A DNA stretch of 36,343 nt from an uncultured bacterium (GTDB lineage: Bacteria > Cyanobacteriota > Vampirovibrionia > Gastranaerophilales > Gastranaerophilaceae): the NCBI GenBank assembly GCA_902792085.1, contig CADAYE010000025.1, positions 1-36,343 of the forward strand, in the 5' to 3' direction. A program made the position numbers and the translations under genes. Below, one piece after another: positions 7,984-26,678 of the stretch. The notes beneath the pieces are model-generated. The model was not told the origin of the DNA, made no database searches, and saw only the letters and a list, made by a program, of their open reading frames with translations. The stretch's first letter is position 1. Every line of letters starts with the position of its first letter.

Positions 7984-9186
7984 ATGAAATCATTAAAGTC
8001 AAACAGACTTCATATAGGTATTTTTGGTAAAACTAATGTCGGTAAATCCTCTCTGTTAAACAGAATAACAGGTCAGGATGTTTCTATTGTATCGGATATT
8101 GCGGGAACAACGACTGATGTAGTTGAAAAATCAATGGAACTTTTGCCTTTCGGGCCTGTAAATTTTCTCGATAGTGCAGGCATTGATGATATCACCGAAT
8201 TAGGAGAACAAAGGTTTGAAAAAACATTAAAAATTTTAAACAGAACGGATATTGCCGTTTTGGTTTGCGATTATAAAGGGATTGATGATTTTGATATTTC
8301 TCTTATTGGAAAATTTGAGGATTTAAAAATACCCTTTATTGTGGTTATAAATAAATCTGATGTTGAAAAAATATCGGATGAAAAATTGAATGTAATAAAG
8401 AACTACACCCAAAATATTTTTATAACTTCTGCAAAAGATGATAGTGAAATTGTTTATAAATTAAAATCAGCATTGATACAACTTTTACCTGATTATTTTA
8501 TAAATACTCCAAAAATTGTCGGAGATATTGTACCGGCAGGTTCTACCGTCTTGCTGGTAATTCCGATTGATAAAGAAGCACCTAAAGGTAGGATTATTTT
8601 GCCTCAGGTTCAAACATTGAGAGATTTGTTGGATAGCGGTTGTGTTACTCTCGCAGTAAGAGATACCGAACTAAAAAATGCGCTTGATAATTTGAAAACT
8701 CCTCCGGCGCTTGTTATAACTGATTCACAGGCTTTTAAAAAAGTGAATGAAATTGTGCCTAAAAATATTGCTTTGACTTCATTTTCAATTCTTTTTGCAA
8801 GACTTAAAGGGGATTTAAGTGCTTTTATTTGTGGAGCAAAAGCAATAGATACTCTAAAAGATGACGATAAAGTTTTGATATTGGAAAGTTGTACTCATCA
8901 TGCTATAGAAGATGATATTGGTCGCGTCAAAATCCCAAATCTTTTAAGAAAAAAGACAGGCAAGAATTTGATAATAGAACATTTTTCGGGGCATGATTTT
9001 CCTGATGTTTCTGATTACAAACTCATAGTTCATTGTGGTGCCTGCATGACAAACCGCAGAGAAGTTTTGTCAAGAATTTTGAGAGCAAACAAAGCAGGCG
9101 TGCCGATTACAAATTACGGCATAGCGATTTCATATTGCCTTGGTATTATTGACCGTGCAGTAAAAATATTTGATTCTAATGATTAA
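7984..9186 (+). CDS. hydF: [FeFe]-hydrogenase H-cluster maturation GTPase HydF
   Basis: HydF is the scaffold on which the 2Fe subcluster of [FeFe] hydrogenase is assembled before transfer to HydA; it works with the radical-SAM enzymes HydE and HydG, neither of which is in this window. The 400 residues show a GTPase domain (P-loop GKTNVGKSS near residue 14, the DIAGTTTD switch, DSAG, NKSD), a dimerisation domain, and a C-terminal Fe-S domain. The cluster ligands are visible as C303-T-H305 and H350-C351-G-A-C354. The ATG at 7984 is used; a GTG at 7954 lies in the palindromic repeat upstream of the Shine-Dalgarno. The end overlaps the next convergent gene by 4 bp. It implies fermentative hydrogen metabolism. 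Confidence 0.95.
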   Translation: MKSLKSNRLHIGIFGKTNVGKSSLLNRITGQDVSIVSDIAGTTTDVVEKSMELLPFGPVNFLDSAGIDDITELGEQRFEKTLKILNRTDIAVLVCDYKGIDDFDISLIGKFEDLKIPFIVVINKSDVEKISDEKLNVIKNYTQNIFITSAKDDSEIVYKLKSALIQLLPDYFINTPKIVGDIVPAGSTVLLVIPIDKEAPKGRIILPQVQTLRDLLDSGCVTLAVRDTELKNALDNLKTPPALVITDSQAFKKVNEIVPKNIALTSFSILFARLKGDLSAFICGAKAIDTLKDDDKVLILESCTHHAIEDDIGRVKIPNLLRKKTGKNLIIEHFSGHDFPDVSDYKLIVHCGACMTNRREVLSRILRANKAGVPITNYGIAISYCLGIIDRAVKIFDSND

Positions 9187-9713
9187 TCAATACCTTCTTC
9201 AATACGGTTTAAAATTCTGTCCCACATTTTGTTTGAAAGTATTCTTTCGAGGTTATTTTCTACAATATTATTTACAAATCTGTCAATTTCGCTGTTTCCG
9301 CCGTTTATTGAACTATAAGTTTTTAAAGTCGCATTTCCGTGGTCTGTTTCAATCATTTTTTCATATCTGAAATTGTTAGGGTTATCCCTGTCCATTAAGA
9401 TTCTTTCATTATATTTGCCGTCATTAATATCTATTAGCAAAGCAGGATATTTTTGGGCATAAACCGGTTCAAATGATACGTGTTTATTTCCGTCCATAAT
9501 TTGAAAAATTGGTTTTTCTGCCATATTTTTACCTTGCTTAATATCAGTCCATTCTTTATCTATGCAAGAATTTAATTCATTAATTAGTTTTACTGTTTTT
9601 TTCGATATTGTTCCTTTGTCAGGAGGTAAAATTCTGTCAAAATTTGTTGCGGCTTTAAAAGAAACGCTGTTTGTATAATATAAGTTGTTATTTTGAATGT
9701 TCGAAATTCTCAT
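9183..9713 (-). CDS. lineage-specific protein of unknown function (N-terminal MRIxxI...FKA motif)
   Basis: 176 residues, no recognised domain, no membrane segment and no classical signal peptide. The first 23 residues (MRISNIQNNNLYYTNSVSFK, then AAT) resemble the start of the giant protein at 26267 (MRINRVNNCTAFTG): a short basic/asparagine-rich lead ending in an aromatic-x-small motif. The body is alternately charged and asparagine-rich, with a C-terminal amphipathic helix (DRFVNNIVENNLERILSNKMWDRILNRIEE). It has a strong Shine-Dalgarno (AAAAGGAG). The upstream region contains the motif AATAGCAAAAAA (minus strand), shared with two other minus-strand genes in the window. Convergent with hydF. 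Confidence 0.7.
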   Translation of the reverse strand: MRISNIQNNNLYYTNSVSFKAATNFDRILPPDKGTISKKTVKLINELNSCIDKEWTDIKQGKNMAEKPIFQIMDGNKHVSFEPVYAQKYPALLIDINDGKYNERILMDRDNPNNFRYEKMIETDHGNATLKTYSSINGGNSEIDRFVNNIVENNLERILSNKMWDRILNRIEEGID

Positions 9714-14382: not shown

Positions 14383-14862
14383 TTATTTTTTCTTAAACAT
14401 TCCGACAAATGTTTCAGCCCACTCGTTCAAATATGGGTATTTATCTTTATGCCAATGATGGTCAATAAGTTCCTGTAAATTTTCTTTAATTGTCCCGATA
14501 TTATTTAGTCTTTCGTATATATATGAAAACATTCCGGTACGGTCTGCTCCTTGTTTGCAATGCAGATGTACCTTTCCGCCGTTTTGTTTTACTCCCTCAA
14601 CAATATCTAAAAATTCTCCGATATTTTCTTTTTTGGGATACATTGATATAGATGGGATATTGTGATATCTCATCCCAAGTTCTTTTACCGCTTCTGCTTC
14701 GTTGTAATCTGTATCAGTTACTCCCATTGTTCTTAAATTAACAACATCTGTTACGCCATGTTTTTTTAACCATTTTAATTCTCTAATGGTTGGTTGCGCT
14801 GAACGTGAAAGATATTTGTCTATTTGTTTGTAATTTTCCGGTTTGAAAAATATAGTAAACAT
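14383..14862 (-). CDS. dual-specificity/tyrosine phosphatase-like protein
   Basis: 159 residues with the cysteine-phosphatase loop HCKQGADRTG: nucleophile Cys102 and Arg108 in the CX5R arrangement. Upstream SRSAQPTIRELKWLKKHGVTDVVNLR matches the start of small atypical DSP/Siw14-like phosphatases, and an aspartate-containing TDTDYNEAE loop precedes the core. Substrate unknown: phosphoprotein, inositol phosphate or another phosphoester. Shine-Dalgarno AGGGG. The upstream region, shared with the divergent small membrane protein gene, contains site 2 of the AATAGCAAAAAA motif. Confidence 0.85.
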   Translation of the reverse strand: MFTIFFKPENYKQIDKYLSRSAQPTIRELKWLKKHGVTDVVNLRTMGVTDTDYNEAEAVKELGMRYHNIPSISMYPKKENIGEFLDIVEGVKQNGGKVHLHCKQGADRTGMFSYIYERLNNIGTIKENLQELIDHHWHKDKYPYLNEWAETFVGMFKKK

Positions 14863-20279: not shown

Positions 20280-23200
20280 TTATTCGGATGTTATTCCTAT
20301 ATTAGGATAAGACTTTTGTACGCTATGTTCGTATTCTAAAAGTTCTTGCAATGCTTCTATATATTTTTCTGCGTCATCAGCAACCTGTGAATTGTCAGGC
20401 AGAAGTAATTTTTTAATCAGATCATATCGTTTTTGTATTACTTGAAGTGGACTGTTCAAATAATTTATGCTAGCCTTAACGACTTCTCTCAATCCTGCAA
20501 TCGCCAAATCAATATTTGTCCCTAAAAGTAATGTCTTTGATTGGTCTGGTTGTGATTTTATTTCTTTTATTGCGTCATCTAATGCCGCTTCAAATATTGA
20601 TGCTCCCGCACTGAAACTTGTTCTTTTTGCCTTTTCCATAAGTCTTTGCTTGAGGTCAAGTATAATTTGTTCATAATTCGCATCATTGTCTATATTTCCA
20701 AGTTTTCTTACTTCTTCTCTTGCAAATTTAGCCTGAGAATCGGAACTTTTAATTATAGTTTGTATTCTGTTAAAATTCTTGTATGCAATATCAAGTGATT
20801 TTTTGTCAGAAATCATTTTTGCTACTTTTTCTGATAAACCGAGTTGATTTAAGAATAATGCCGCCGTATCAAGATTTTCTTCCTGAAGCATTGGTGAAAT
20901 AATTAAATTCAATCCTTCTTCCGAATCCATTGTGACAACAGAACCATCATTTAATTCAATGGTAGAAGTTCTAAATGCATCTCTAACTGCGTTGAGATTA
21001 CCTTTTTTTGCACAATCCATTAATGTTAATTGAAGCTCCATCATATCCGCTTTGTATAATAGTGATTTGAGGTTGGTTTTAAAGGTCTCGCGCATATCTT
21101 TTATGGCTTGTTTACCTTTGTCACTGTCATTATCATATTTTCTGTCAGGATGTTTTGCATCTTTGGCACAAAGCAGTAAATATTCATTCATATACCTGTC
21201 AGGACTTGCAAGAAGCCTGTGTTTCATAAACAAATCTTTAAATTGTGCAAAATACATTTCGGTATTTGCGGCATTTTTAGTATATTTTTCTGCAATAGAT
21301 TTTGCTTTGTCACTGCTTTCTTCATTTACGGTCGGGTTAAAGTGGTCTTTTACCCATACAGCCTTTGATTTTGCTGATATCCATTTGTTAAGAAGCTCAA
21401 GTGCTTTGCCTTGATATTTAGGCTCAAACATACTCATTACATAAGTCTTTTTGTAGATATCAATATTTTTCAAAGTTACCTGTTCGGCTTCTTTCATTGT
21501 TTTGCCGTCTGCGGTTTTTTCATATATTCTAAATAAATCGTATAAAGAATTTATGTAGTCTTTGTATATTTTAATGTTTTTTGTTCCGGAAGCAAATAAT
21601 AGTCTTGCTTCTTCTTTTTTGCCGTCAAGAGTTTCATCACTTGAATTAATGGCCATTAGCCTGCTTAAATCTCTGGTAATTTTTGAATACTGCTTCGGAG
21701 TCATATTTCCTGAACGTGTGAGTTTTGAATCCGCATATTTCTTCAACCCATATATCAAATCTAATGATGCTTGCTGATTTTTGTACGCATAGATATAGTC
21801 CATGTAGTTATTTAATTTTTCGTTAAATGTATTTAGCGAATTTTCAAGGTCTTGCTCTGTTGAAATTTCAACAAGCGGATATGCTGGAAATGCAAAATAT
21901 TTTCTGAAGGCATCGTCTTTATATTTGTCAAATTCTTTTTTAATTGTTAATCCCTGGAAGTTGTAATAAAAATCAGAATATAAATCGTCAAAGGAACGCT
22001 TACCGCCAATATATGTTCCCCCGCTAAGGTTTCTTGAAAGTTTTTTAAGATCATAATATGCCCTTGTTTTACTTTCTTCGATGTCTTGGTAGTAACCTTC
22101 CGAAAATACGGTATTTATAAACGAATTTTTCATAGAATCATTGCCTGAGCGAATTGCTTTAATAACATCATATCCGTTTATTGAGTCAATACCCATATCA
22201 AAATCAGATATTTTTGAGTCATAGTTTTTCTTAAAATCTTCATTTGACATACGACGTAAATTGTTCAGAATTTGAGCGAACTCTTTATCTGTTCTTGGCG
22301 AAAATTCTCTGTCTATCCAGCCGGCAATTTTTTCGTTTCGTCCTGTTGCAAATTGCGTTTTTACATCATTTTCCGTTATTGTTAAATTCTTTTCTATTAA
22401 AGATTTAACTTTAGCAGATATTTCTTTAATTTTTTCGTCTGGTACATTAGTTTTTAATTTTAAATATTTTTCAAAATTTGCAATCATAAGGTCTGTACCC
22501 TGCGAAATACTACCGTCGTAATTGTTCTTTTTGATTCGTTTCATTGAATTTACAATTTTTGTCATTGCTTTGTAACTTAGATTTACATTGTTATCTTTTG
22601 CAAATTCTTTTAATAATGCGTATGTGTCTTTTCGTGCGCTTTCTGTTGCATATTTGAGAATATCAGGATTTTTACCCATAATATAATCAAAATTATTTCT
22701 TGCTTCGATACACAGTTTTTTGTGCAGTTTATCAAGTTCTTTTTGTGATTTCACTTCAATATTATATGTATTTATATCCGGAATTTGGTCATAAGATTTT
22801 ATAATCGCAACCTTTTCTGCCATAAGTCTGAGTTTGTCGTTAGGTGAAAGATTATAATATTTTTCTTCGCTATCTATTCCTTTATCAAAAATCTCATCTC
22901 CATTAATTCTTTTTAATAAAAGAGCATAAGTTTTTCTTGAAGATTCACCTGCGGTTTGAATTCTTTTTATTGCAGATTTAATTTCATTCTGAGTCATTTC
23001 TGATGCAAATTCACTTAAATCATCAAGGTATTGGGAAGATGGTAATAAAAGATTTTGTTTAATTGTTTTTACGGTTGACATTGCTTTCGGTGAAACACCC
23101 TGCATCATAAGTGAACGAATCATTGGGTAGGTATATTCTTCTTCAGCTTCATTTACAAGTTTATTATATTGTTTGTTAGGTATTTTTTCAGGAACAAATT

Positions 23201-26200
23201 TGCCTTTTTTATTCACAAGATTATCTTCGAGTTTTCCGTTTTGAAATTTTTCGTTTGTGATGTATCCTTCCTGACCACCATATGAACTCGAATAATCTGT
23301 TCTTAACATTCCGAGTTTGTCAACCCATACATTTTCGTGTTCTGATGCACCCCAACTGTTATCGTGAAAAATTATATCTTTAATTTTTGTTGTATCTTCA
23401 AATGTTAATACTGTCGGTTTAACGTCAACAACGTACTGCGCATGCATAGCAGGCTCACTATCTTTGACTGAAGTCATAGATGTTGCCGAATATGGGGAGC
23501 GCTTAATTTTATCTAAACCTGAACGTATATTGGTCTCTTCATAATACGGACGGTCGGTCATGTGTTCAAATATTTTTAGCGCCTGATTTTCCATTAAACC
23601 GCTTTCATTTTCTCTTGTCCAATATTCACCTTTCTGAACCCCAATTTCCCTGTTAAGTTCTTCCAAAGGTTGTTTCATTTGGACATAAATATCGTTCAGA
23701 TTCCTTGTTGATTCTGCGTACCATGAATTTATATTTCTTTTGTATTTTTCAAGTGCTGCTTTTTCTTTTGGTGTAAATTCCGTTATAGATTTTGGCAAAT
23801 CTTTAAATTTAACCTTTGTACCGTCTTGTGAATATCTGTTTTTAGCAAATTCGTCAAATTTATTGCTCAAAGATATAAGTTCTTCTTCCGTTGCCATTTC
23901 TTCAACTTTTTCAAGGTGTTTCATTGCGGCAAATTTCGGATCTGCCGTATTTAGCATCCTTCCGTCAGGAAGTGTTACCTGAAGTGTGTCCTGCAGTGTT
24001 TTTATAATCATTGACATATTATTAAAACTTGTTGCAAGAACTTTGTATAAATCTTGTGTCGTTTCGATGTCAGAATCCATCGGCGCACCGTTTATAATAT
24101 TAAAGCCTGCAATATATGACGGATTCGGATTGGAAAACAGAAGTTCAAATGTATTGTCAAAAGCATCTTTCAAATCAAGAAGTTGTGATTTATGCCCCGA
24201 TTTATTATAAATTTCAGAATATTGTTCATCTGTACAATTTTCATCAGACAGTATTTCAATATATTTATCAAGTGTATCAATGATTGCTTGCTTATTCGGT
24301 TTGATTTTTAAATCTTTAGCGACTTTTTCAAGAATCTCTTTGTCTTTTGTTGACTCGACTTCATTTCTTACGGCATCGAGTTGAGTAACAAGTGTTTGTT
24401 TTCTGTCTCCAAGTAAAAGAGAATGATAAATGTCATCTATAAAAGTTGTAGTCAGTAGTTTGATTGTATTTGCATAATCGTCAAGTACAGTTGCAAGTAA
24501 TTCGTCTTTGGGCGCAGATAATTCCTGCGATTTTTCTTCTATTTCTTTTTCAAATCTTTCGTATAAAATCTCTTTAAGTTCAGGATTGATTTTACCTGAG
24601 CGGATATTTTTTCTTAAAGTATTCAAATTTTCAATAACGTATGATTCGTTATCCGAGATATTGAATTGAATCATACTATTTGTCAGATATTCCGGTATAT
24701 CAAACGCAAAGGATTGTTGAGTTCTGTATGCTGCAGCTGCTTCAAATAATGCTTTATTTTCAAGATATTTTTGAGCAGGACTCAAACTGTTACCTTTATT
24801 AACACTTTTAATTTCTTCAACAATATCTGTAATGTCTTCTGATTTTTCATGTAAAATCTTGTGGTTTATATTTTCACCAAGGATATTATTTAAAAATTCT
24901 TCAATTTTTTGTTTTTTTACATCTTTTTCTTCATTAGTAATAAATGAATATTGTTTTAATTTTGGGTCTAACTTATTTCTTTCATCAGAGTAATCTAATG
25001 GAAGCGAATGCAATTCATTTGAAATTTTTCTCAATTCTTCCTGTTTAAGTTCAGGTGATATTTCTTTGATTATAGAATGTAAAAGTTGAGTATCTTTTGC
25101 GGATATGTAAATTCTTTCCTTTTCTTTTGCATTTTGAACAGATGCATAGTATTTTTGCTTTTCAATTGCTTTTTTGCAGGTTGTAAGTGCATCTTTAGAT
25201 TTTTTGCAGCTTCTGTAATAATCCTGATATTTTTCACTTTGATTATCAATATCTTTATGAATATGAGTATCTGCGAATGTTCCGAAATTTGCTTTGTCAA
25301 ATGCAGAATAAGCACCTACAACATCGTTAAATGCTCCGACAGTATCAGCAGCATTCATCCAGTTCATAACAGAGGTATCTACAATTCTGTAACCTTTTTT
25401 TATTGCGTAATCGTAATCTATATCGGCTTTTGGTATGGGAACCTTTTGATGTTTGCCTAAATTCGCCCTGTCATACACCATCATGTTTGGTTTATCATCA
25501 AGTTCTGTTAATATCATATCAACATAATTCGCTTTATCTTCATAAGCAAGCGCCTTACGACAAATTGAAATTGCAACGCACATACCATGCTGTTTTTGGT
25601 TGATTGCCTTGATGTTGGGTATTTTTGATTCAGGTGTATCGATTACAATGTCGTTTAATATTTCAGCCAAAACCATTGTCTTTTTATCTTGAAGTTGAGG
25701 ATTGATGTGGTAATCATTACTCATCATATAATTCAGTCTTTTTAGTATATATAGTTTTTGAGTAGTCGGAACCTCTGAGGATATGATAAAATAGTTTAAA
25801 TTTTTCTGTATTTTTCTTTCGTTTTCATTCAAACCTTTAAGTTCCTCAGGATTGATTTTTGATAAAAGAATTTCTCTGTTTGCCAAGATTTCTCGTTCTT
25901 CAGATGAAATATTTTTCGGAGTTTTAATTGCTTGCTCAAGTTTTTTGGATAATTTTTCCTGCACTGATTTATCAGATAACTTTAAAGATTTTTGTGCTGC
26001 TTTGTTTAACTTTTCTTTCCAGTTGTTGTATGGTCTTTTCCCCAAATCAATGTTTGTTCCGTAGCGAAGATTTTGCGATACATCAAGCAAAAAGTTTATG
26101 TTATCTTCTCCTGGGACTTTCGATAATTCCTCAATAGCATTTGAAATTCGGCGTTGATTAGGCAGATTCAAATCATAAGAGTTCTCTTTTTTTAACTGTT

Positions 26201-26267
26201 CTACTGTATTTCTATCCTGTCTGACACCTGTAAATGCGGTGCAGTTATTTACTCTGTTTATTCTCAT
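20280..26267 (-). CDS. giant protein with papain-fold (C1/bleomycin-hydrolase-like) cysteine peptidase signature
   Basis: 1995 residues in one uninterrupted frame. Around Cys230 the text is AINQKQHGMCVAISICRKAL: Gln224 is six residues before the cysteine, as Gln19 is before Cys25 in papain, and NQK.xG.C recalls bleomycin hydrolase. His942 lies in AMHAQYVVDV and Asn970 in IIFHDNSWGAS, the usual HAxxxxG and xNSWG blocks, followed by a glycine-rich SYGGQEGYITN. The order Cys-His-Asn is that of family C1, but Cys and His are about 710 residues apart, so a large, mostly helical and charged insert splits the fold. The last 1000 residues are also helical and charged. No signal peptide or membrane helix. 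It starts MRINRVNNCTAFTG, like the 9713 gene, and has upstream motif site 3. Activity and substrate are unknown. Confidence 0.8.
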   Translation of the reverse strand: MRINRVNNCTAFTGVRQDRNTVEQLKKENSYDLNLPNQRRISNAIEELSKVPGEDNINFLLDVSQNLRYGTNIDLGKRPYNNWKEKLNKAAQKSLKLSDKSVQEKLSKKLEQAIKTPKNISSEEREILANREILLSKINPEELKGLNENERKIQKNLNYFIISSEVPTTQKLYILKRLNYMMSNDYHINPQLQDKKTMVLAEILNDIVIDTPESKIPNIKAINQKQHGMCVAISICRKALAYEDKANYVDMILTELDDKPNMMVYDRANLGKHQKVPIPKADIDYDYAIKKGYRIVDTSVMNWMNAADTVGAFNDVVGAYSAFDKANFGTFADTHIHKDIDNQSEKYQDYYRSCKKSKDALTTCKKAIEKQKYYASVQNAKEKERIYISAKDTQLLHSIIKEISPELKQEELRKISNELHSLPLDYSDERNKLDPKLKQYSFITNEEKDVKKQKIEEFLNNILGENINHKILHEKSEDITDIVEEIKSVNKGNSLSPAQKYLENKALFEAAAAYRTQQSFAFDIPEYLTNSMIQFNISDNESYVIENLNTLRKNIRSGKINPELKEILYERFEKEIEEKSQELSAPKDELLATVLDDYANTIKLLTTTFIDDIYHSLLLGDRKQTLVTQLDAVRNEVESTKDKEILEKVAKDLKIKPNKQAIIDTLDKYIEILSDENCTDEQYSEIYNKSGHKSQLLDLKDAFDNTFELLFSNPNPSYIAGFNIINGAPMDSDIETTQDLYKVLATSFNNMSMIIKTLQDTLQVTLPDGRMLNTADPKFAAMKHLEKVEEMATEEELISLSNKFDEFAKNRYSQDGTKVKFKDLPKSITEFTPKEKAALEKYKRNINSWYAESTRNLNDIYVQMKQPLEELNREIGVQKGEYWTRENESGLMENQALKIFEHMTDRPYYEETNIRSGLDKIKRSPYSATSMTSVKDSEPAMHAQYVVDVKPTVLTFEDTTKIKDIIFHDNSWGASEHENVWVDKLGMLRTDYSSSYGGQEGYITNEKFQNGKLEDNLVNKKGKFVPEKIPNKQYNKLVNEAEEEYTYPMIRSLMMQGVSPKAMSTVKTIKQNLLLPSSQYLDDLSEFASEMTQNEIKSAIKRIQTAGESSRKTYALLLKRINGDEIFDKGIDSEEKYYNLSPNDKLRLMAEKVAIIKSYDQIPDINTYNIEVKSQKELDKLHKKLCIEARNNFDYIMGKNPDILKYATESARKDTYALLKEFAKDNNVNLSYKAMTKIVNSMKRIKKNNYDGSISQGTDLMIANFEKYLKLKTNVPDEKIKEISAKVKSLIEKNLTITENDVKTQFATGRNEKIAGWIDREFSPRTDKEFAQILNNLRRMSNEDFKKNYDSKISDFDMGIDSINGYDVIKAIRSGNDSMKNSFINTVFSEGYYQDIEESKTRAYYDLKKLSRNLSGGTYIGGKRSFDDLYSDFYYNFQGLTIKKEFDKYKDDAFRKYFAFPAYPLVEISTEQDLENSLNTFNEKLNNYMDYIYAYKNQQASLDLIYGLKKYADSKLTRSGNMTPKQYSKITRDLSRLMAINSSDETLDGKKEEARLLFASGTKNIKIYKDYINSLYDLFRIYEKTADGKTMKEAEQVTLKNIDIYKKTYVMSMFEPKYQGKALELLNKWISAKSKAVWVKDHFNPTVNEESSDKAKSIAEKYTKNAANTEMYFAQFKDLFMKHRLLASPDRYMNEYLLLCAKDAKHPDRKYDNDSDKGKQAIKDMRETFKTNLKSLLYKADMMELQLTLMDCAKKGNLNAVRDAFRTSTIELNDGSVVTMDSEEGLNLIISPMLQEENLDTAALFLNQLGLSEKVAKMISDKKSLDIAYKNFNRIQTIIKSSDSQAKFAREEVRKLGNIDNDANYEQIILDLKQRLMEKAKRTSFSAGASIFEAALDDAIKEIKSQPDQSKTLLLGTNIDLAIAGLREVVKASINYLNSPLQVIQKRYDLIKKLLLPDNSQVADDAEKYIEALQELLEYEHSVQKSYPNIGITSE

Positions 26268-26396: not shown

Positions 26397-26678
26397 ATGA
26401 TGAGTAAACAGGAAATTTTGCAATACCAGCCTCAAGGTGTTTGTTGCCAAATGATGCAGGTAGCAGTAGAGGATAATAAAATAATTGATGCAGCGTTTTT
26501 TGGGGGTTGTAACGGGAATTTATCAGGAATCAGAGAACTGATTAAGGGAATGACAATAGACGATGTAATAGAAAGATTGGGAGGTATCCCTTGTGGAGCG
26601 AAATCTACAAGTTGTCCTGATCAACTTGCGGCTTGTCTTTTGGAGTACAAACAGAAAAAATTAGCACGGGCAAAATAA
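26397..26678 (+). CDS. TSCPD-domain protein (TIGR03905-like)
   Basis: 93 residues (91-92 if an adjacent ATG is used). Cysteine-rich, with QPQGVCCQMMQVAVEDNKIIDAAFFGGCNGNLSGIRELIKGM and the name-giving CGAKSTSCPDQLAACLLEY. The TSCPD domain occurs alone in small proteins of anaerobes and at the C-terminus of B12-dependent ribonucleotide reductases, where its cysteines bind metal or relay electrons; the stand-alone role is unknown. AAGAGG precedes the start. It is followed 3 bp later by the response regulator. Confidence 0.85.
   Translation: MMSKQEILQYQPQGVCCQMMQVAVEDNKIIDAAFFGGCNGNLSGIRELIKGMTIDDVIERLGGIPCGAKSTSCPDQLAACLLEYKQKKLARAK

What the first reader, a model, noticed from the sequence alone, without database searches (positions are those of the whole stretch)
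20280..26267. A 1995-residue protein with a split papain-type catalytic triad
Seen: Gln224-x5-Cys230 in QKQHGMCVAIS, His942 in AMHAQYVV, Asn970 in HDNSWG, in the C1 order and with C1-like local context (NQKxxGxC; NSWG). The Cys-His distance is about 710 residues, against about 134 in papain and about 300 in bleomycin hydrolase. Established: C1 peptidases use Gln/Cys/His/Asn in this order. Inference: this is a giant C1-like peptidase with a large helical insertion and a helical tail of about 1000 residues, possibly a new family and perhaps an effector or processing enzyme.
Basis: partly seen in the sequence, partly recalled or inferred. Interest (0 to 1): 0.8.

Follow-up and report, generated by a model that had tools for sequence, protein, structure and literature searches.

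The report
Giant papain-like protease with split core
A group of gut bacteria carries one copy of a giant, previously unclassified enzyme whose protein-cutting centre, related to papain and calpain, is split in two by an insert of several hundred residues; the cutting residues are identical in 128 relatives, so it is probably a real and active protease family, though its structure and job are not yet shown.

Summary
The 1995-aa gene lies on the minus strand (26267..20280). Gln224, Cys230, His942, Asn970 and Trp972 are invariant in 128 distinct homologues; in a 69-sequence subset (median identity 27%) C230, H942, Q224 and N970 are the only invariant Cys, His, Gln and Asn. The gene is under purifying selection (dN/dS 0.08-0.11), strongest in the two catalytic halves (0.02-0.05). 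No Pfam, NCBIfam or PDB sequence family matches. By profile comparison the Cys half is nearest to C1 (papain) and the His/Asn half nearest to C2 (calpain), with catalytic residues in register. A clan CA enzyme is likely; C1 membership is not shown. The 465-765-residue split is real; its core (531-770) holds degenerate tandem repeats and is missing in some lineages. The family is single-copy, found in about a third of genomes of one order (probably Gastranaerophilales), inherited within genera, absent from plasmid, phage and viral collections, and at this site is a clean one-gene insert or loss between ftsZ and a TSCPD gene. AlphaFold2 on the permitted nine-sequence alignment failed (pLDDT 49.5), so the fold is unproven. 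Nothing supports an effector role.

The parts
20280..26267 (-). gene for the 1995-aa protein (P0001), 230 kDa, pI 6.3, no signal peptide seen, no transmembrane segment (highest 19-residue mean hydropathy 1.2)
   Evidence: homologues of 1369-2167 aa with the same order of parts
25686..26267 (-). residues 1-194: conserved N-terminal region, predicted helical from about residue 35; includes the F-[KT]-G-x-R-x-D-[RK]-N signature at residues 12-20
25233..25685 (-). residues 195-345: catalytic half 1 (Cys half), consensus NQ-x3-G-x-C-x-A-x-S-x2-RK
   Evidence: best profile match C1, 0 of 150 column shuffles as good
25596..25598 (-). codon of Gln224, proposed oxyanion-hole residue
   Evidence: invariant 128/128
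25578..25580 (-). codon of Cys230, proposed nucleophile
   Evidence: invariant 128/128; the only invariant Cys of 9 in the 69-sequence set
23733..25232 (-). residues 346-845: insert between the catalytic halves, predicted mostly helical, evolving fastest (dN/dS 0.14-0.20)
23958..24677 (-). residues 531-770: core of the insert with degenerate tandem repeats (about 70-80 aa each), absent from homologues L062-L064, L071 and L072
   Evidence: self-alignment of the insert profile E 1e-9; gap map
23223..23732 (-). residues 846-1015: catalytic half 2 (His/Asn half), with M-T-[GD] at 903-905, HAQY and DN[ST]WGxxE
   Evidence: best profile match C2 calpain, 1 of 150 column shuffles as good
23442..23444 (-). 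codon of His942, proposed catalytic His
   Evidence: invariant 128/128; the only invariant His of 21 in the 69-sequence set
23358..23360 (-). codon of Asn970, proposed catalytic Asn
   Evidence: invariant 128/128; the only invariant Asn of 152 in the 69-sequence set
20283..23222 (-). residues 1016-1995: tail, predicted almost wholly helical; 827-1350 residues follow N970 in most full-length relatives and about 640 in L062-L064
19108..20214 (+). ftsZ, converging on the gene; one border of the insertion/loss site
   Evidence: PF00091, PF12327
26397..26678 (+). TSCPD-domain gene, divergent; the other border of the insertion/loss site
   Evidence: PF12637, E 4e-23

Best explanation
It is a giant intracellular-type cysteine peptidase of the papain superfamily (clan CA) whose catalytic domain is encoded in two halves, residues about 195-345 and 846-1015. 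The two halves are proposed to fold together into one papain-like active site, with the roughly 500-residue insert looping out as a separate module. Cys230 would be the nucleophile, His942 its general base, Asn970 would orient the His (with Trp972 packing on it as in papain and calpain) and Gln224 would form the oxyanion hole. The helical N-terminal region, the repeat-bearing insert and the helical tail most likely select the substrate or gate the site. Shown: the residues, their invariance, purifying selection, the module structure by conservation. Inferred: the fold, the active site in space, proteolysis, the role of the helical parts. It belongs clearly neither to C1 nor to C2 and looks like a separate family beside them.
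For: Catalytic quartet invariant in 128 distinct sequences, and each the only invariant residue of its type in the 69-sequence set. N-half consensus NQxxxGxCxAxS matches the bacterial C1 profile consensus (nQG..gSCtAfA) and aligns to it with C230 on the catalytic Cys; score 25.6 against a shuffle mean of 13.2 (sd 2.4), 0 of 150 as good, first of 18 profiles. C-half aligns to the C2 profile over 76 columns from the MTG motif to WGxxE with H942 and N970 on the catalytic His and Asn; score 26.8 against 13.1 (sd 2.7), 1 of 150 as good, first of the profiles tried. E976 lies at N+6 as in calpain-9 RNPWGQVEW (2p0r). dN/dS is lowest in the two halves. The insert core is missing in some relatives while both halves remain, as expected for a looped-out module.
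Against: No sequence-family hit at threshold. Profile scores are low in absolute terms (hhalign probability 12-13%), and each half prefers a different known family. AlphaFold2 on nine close sequences gave pLDDT 49.5 and under about 40 around all catalytic residues, so contact is untested. Co-evolution between the halves is only marginal after matching for column entropy (mean z 0.042, against -0.018 for half 1 with the insert). The residue after Cys is small, not aromatic as in most C1 and C2 enzymes, though the bacterial C1 set used here mostly has a small residue there too.
Confidence: 0.72

Rival explanations
1. A papain-fold enzyme that is not a peptidase: the same quartet in a clan CA-like fold used as a deamidase, transglutaminase or acyltransferase.
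For: Clan CA and transglutaminase-like folds host such activities (established knowledge); none of the C1/C2 models is matched; invariant K220, R237, K238, K245, E255, R294, D297 in the Cys half point to a specialised surface.
Against: Asn, not Asp, is the third residue in every member; the WG after Asn and the Gln at C-6 are the peptidase arrangement of C1 and C2.
Confidence: 0.17
2. A true C1 (papain) peptidase with a giant insert.
For: N-half matches C1 best; motif NQxxxGxC and NSWG.
Against: PF00112 is not matched by this protein, nor anywhere in the window's genome; the C-half prefers C2 (score 26.8 against 19.5 for C1, which 5 of 150 shuffles reach); His-Asn spacing of 20-33 exceeds papain's 16 (papain value from general knowledge).
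Confidence: 0.12
3. A calpain-like (C2) peptidase whose first half has diverged.
For: C-half alignment from MTG to NxWGxxE; one of 41 members reaches PF00648 at E 0.025.
Against: N-half shows no C2 signal (score equal to shuffles); PF00648 cut-off not met; C2 proteins of the same bacterial family are separate and have NPWD.
Confidence: 0.2
4. A degenerate or structural protein in which the motif is a relic.
For: Most of the protein is helical and evolves quickly; no activity known.
Against: All catalytic residues invariant across 128 sequences and lowest dN/dS exactly there.
Confidence: 0.06
5. A secreted effector or toxin acting on another cell (this could be true together with the best explanation).
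For: The large helical multidomain layout with a cysteine peptidase core resembles some known effectors in general outline only.
Against: No signal peptide or transmembrane segment, no secretion gene beside it, inheritance within genera, no match in plasmids, phages or viral contigs, no PADLOC match.
Confidence: 0.15

Closest known systems
Peptidase family C1 (papain; Pfam PF00112), notably the short bacterial C1 peptidases
   Same: Q-x5-C with N before Q and G two before C, A and S/A after C; H then N with NSWG
   Different: Pfam model not matched; Cys-His gap 467-765 residues instead of about 134; His-Asn gap 20-33 instead of 16; second half closer to C2
Peptidase family C2 (calpain; Pfam PF00648)
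   Same: TG motif, then HA-x-[YF], then N-x-WG-x-x-E in the same order; Q-x5-C; similar His-Asn spacing
   Different: Model not matched; first half shows no C2 signal; S or T instead of P in NPWG; long insert; no C2-type companion domains seen
Bleomycin hydrolase / PepC (PF03051, C1B)
   Same: C1-type enzyme with extra residues between Cys and His; ENSWG
   Different: PF03051 absent from the window's genome; profile match limited to 7 columns around NSWG; far shorter gap
Peptidase C39-like (PF13529)
   Same: Clan CA, Cys then His
   Different: No profile signal in either half above background

Membership tests
C1 papain (PF00112) | match to the curated model | tested here: not met
   no match for the protein or anywhere in the window's genome
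C1 papain (PF00112) | Gln, Cys, His, Asn in this order with Q-x5-C and NSWG | tested here: met
   invariant in 128 sequences; NSWG or NTWG
C1 papain (PF00112) | profile similarity of both halves to C1 | tested here: inconclusive
   N-half above all 150 shuffles but over only 22 columns; C-half reached by 5 of 150
C1 papain (PF00112) | papain fold with the catalytic residues in contact | tested here: inconclusive
   AlphaFold2 pLDDT 49.5, catalytic parts mostly under 40; fold search did not cover them
C2 calpain (PF00648) | match to the curated model | tested here: not met
   one of 41 members at E 0.025, not significant
C2 calpain (PF00648) | calpain-type second half (TG ... HAY ... NPWGxxE) | tested here: inconclusive
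   76-column profile alignment, 1 of 150 shuffles as good; P replaced by S/T
C2 calpain (PF00648) | calcium-binding sites of the catalytic domain | not tested
   needs a structure
Bleomycin hydrolase (PF03051) | match to the curated model | tested here: not met
   no match in the window's genome; hhalign only 7 columns
Clan CA cysteine peptidase (any family) | thiol-dependent peptidase activity | not testable with these tools
   needs protein

The most novel reading that the evidence does not exclude
A new clan CA peptidase family, confined to one order of non-photosynthetic Cyanobacteria relatives, that joins a papain-like first half to a calpain-like second half and has its active site split by a 465-765-residue helical, partly repetitive insert, kept as a single-copy gene.
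Probability: 0.55. Interest if true: 0.62.

Novelty: new variant of a known kind. Interest (0 to 1): 0.52.

Why it matters
If the model is right, a large group of common but hardly studied gut and rumen bacteria carries a 230-kDa cysteine protease that no curated family recognises, and a papain-type fold tolerates an interruption of up to about 770 residues. That gives a natural system for asking how a two-half active site assembles around a big insert, and a clear target for the first biochemistry on an uncharacterised protein of these bacteria. It also bears on how C1 and C2 are related, as its halves look like one each.

Tried and rejected
Pfam, NCBIfam, PADLOC, PHROGs and PDB sequence searches of the whole protein and (Pfam, PDB) of each half: only chance-level matches. 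The tail model (pLDDT 62, pTM 0.31) is helical with no PDB match at E 0.001. The many homologues from the genome search were not handed to the structure tool, since its rule names other sources. Mean-field coupling analysis on 128 sequences: raw counts favoured half-half over half-insert pairs, but after matching for column entropy the excess was marginal, so I do not count it. Viral, phage and plasmid collections: no relatives. Literature: no paper found on such a protein. A shared N-terminal 'F[KT]G' signal in other proteins: not enriched at N-termini against internal positions (10.8% against 6-10%). Considered and dropped: a sequencing or frame artefact (intact in dozens of independent genomes) and frequent horizontal spread (gene tree follows genera).

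Full report
What is there. The finding's span holds one gene on the minus strand, 26267 down to 20280, coding for 1995 residues. The plus strand carries only short ORFs. The window is G000:C25:1-36343 in a 1.92-Mb genome of 39 contigs. Eight close relatives come from metagenome bins, rumen where the title says so, titled 'uncultured bacterium' or 'Bacterium isolate'. No tool named the window's species; from the small genome, the rumen relatives and the FtsZ and gene content I infer Candidatus Gastranaerophilales, a non-photosynthetic order of the Cyanobacteriota/Melainabacteria group (lineage as).

Is the triad real. I collected 69 nearly full-length homologues (20-92% pairwise identity, median 27%) and aligned them. 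Thirty-two columns are invariant. Among them are Q224, C230, H942 and N970, each the only invariant residue of its type in the whole protein (9 Cys, 21 His, 78 Gln, 152 Asn). Adding more sequences (128 distinct, first 1030 residues) changed nothing: the four residues and D969, W972, G973 and E976 are invariant, W981 nearly so. Between close relatives dN/dS is 0.075-0.11 over the gene, 0.02-0.05 in residues 150-345 and 846-1015, 0.14-0.20 in the insert and 0.06-0.10 in the tail. The motif is therefore functional sequence, not chance.

How the protein is built. Five parts emerge from conservation: an N-terminal region (1-194), a Cys half (195-345), an insert (346-845), a His/Asn half (846-1015) and a tail (1016-1995). 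The Cys-His distance is 639-765 in most members and 467-490 in L062-L064, L071 and L072, which lack residues 531-770. That lost core coincides with degenerate tandem repeats: the insert's profile aligns to itself with an offset of about 70-80 residues at E 1e-9, while the tail and the N-terminal region show no such self-match. The tail is predicted almost wholly helical and varies in length.

What fold. No sequence family is matched. I built profiles of C1 (PF00112 members, 33), C2 (PF00648 members, 27), bleomycin hydrolase (10) and C39-like (28) from the same phylum and compared each half separately. The Cys half scores best with C1 (25.6; no shuffle of 150 as good) and at background with C2. 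The His/Asn half scores best with C2 (26.8; 1 of 150), then bleomycin hydrolase (20.8) and C1 (19.5; 5 of 150). In the C1 alignments of both halves and in the C2 alignment of the His/Asn half the catalytic residues fall in register. Sixteen unrelated families from the neighbourhood score lower. The C2 alignment runs from the M-T-G motif to N-x-W-G-x-x-E; calpain-9 has the same Glu (RNPWGQVEW). These are weak matches in absolute terms (probability 12-13%). Together with the invariance they make a papain-superfamily catalytic domain the best reading, while C1 or C2 membership stays open. Co-evolution between the halves was not conclusive.

Where it occurs. With the A1 profile 140 of 383 genomes in the bacterial family and 22 of 41 genera have exactly one copy, and the rest have none, with no intermediate matches. 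In a sample of 386 genomes from the whole phylum every hit lay in the same order. No plasmid, phage or viral contig carries it. The gene tree needs 26 genus changes where 25 is the minimum, so it is inherited within genera and, given its patchy presence, probably lost often. At the window's site the gene lies between ftsZ and a TSCPD-domain gene. In five of six genomes of the genus that lack it, ftsZ and the TSCPD gene lie next to each other, under 80 bases apart, a clean empty site. In other genera the neighbours differ.

How it most likely works. The two halves fold together around the insert, C230 attacks an amide bond, H942 is the base, N970 and W972 hold the His, and Q224 stabilises the oxyanion. 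The helical parts would choose or restrict substrates. Steps shown: residues, invariance, selection, module boundaries. Steps inferred: fold, contact, proteolysis, role of the helical parts. The lack of a signal peptide and of membrane segments and the inheritance pattern favour a role inside the cell, such as controlled processing of the cell's own proteins; an exported role is not excluded.

Verdict. Observation confirmed; interpretation partly supported. A conserved, unclassified giant clan CA-like enzyme with a split core: a new variant of a known kind, pending a structure.

Noticed in passing
window 26397-26678 (+); L237-L240, L242: A TSCPD-domain gene sits beside the giant gene in many genus members even when other neighbours differ (for example L004); in genomes lacking the giant gene it lies directly after ftsZ, giving a clean empty site.
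   Followed up: yes
L060:2084-2356, L061:2302-2574, L067:8497-8778, L068:2386-2658, L069:801-1079, L074:2012-2281, L075:8509-8787, L076:2473-2745: In several genomes outside the window's genus a small protein of about 91 aa with a signal-peptide-like start and the core 'NIGTYKTETEYGLLDGFK' follows the giant gene on the same strand at about 30-90 bases: a possible operon partner.
   Followed up: partly
window 26209-26267 (residues 1-20), 9183-9713 (-); L022:7926-8381, L053:1973-2287, L008:4314-5129: The family's start 'M-[KR]-[IV]-...-F-[KT]-G' resembles the starts of some unrelated proteins of these genomes; simple counts show no enrichment at N-termini.
   Followed up: partly
residues about 763-773 and 1769-1779 of P0001: Two predicted beta hairpins with a similar 'hydrophobic-x-L-x-DG-x-x-hydrophobic' pattern, one near the end of the insert and one in the tail, both in otherwise helical parts.
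   Followed up: no
L007:1735-7672 (same gene as L017): In one genome the gene is split into two ORFs (990 and 956 aa); a few other bins show one in-frame stop. Intact copies exist in most genomes.
   Followed up: no
L145-L148: Some members of the same bacterial family carry separate calpain-like C2 proteins (about 470-770 aa) with an NPWD instead of NPWG motif.
   Followed up: partly
window 14383-14862 (-): Small dual-specificity-phosphatase-like protein (PF22741, E 2e-10).
   Followed up: no
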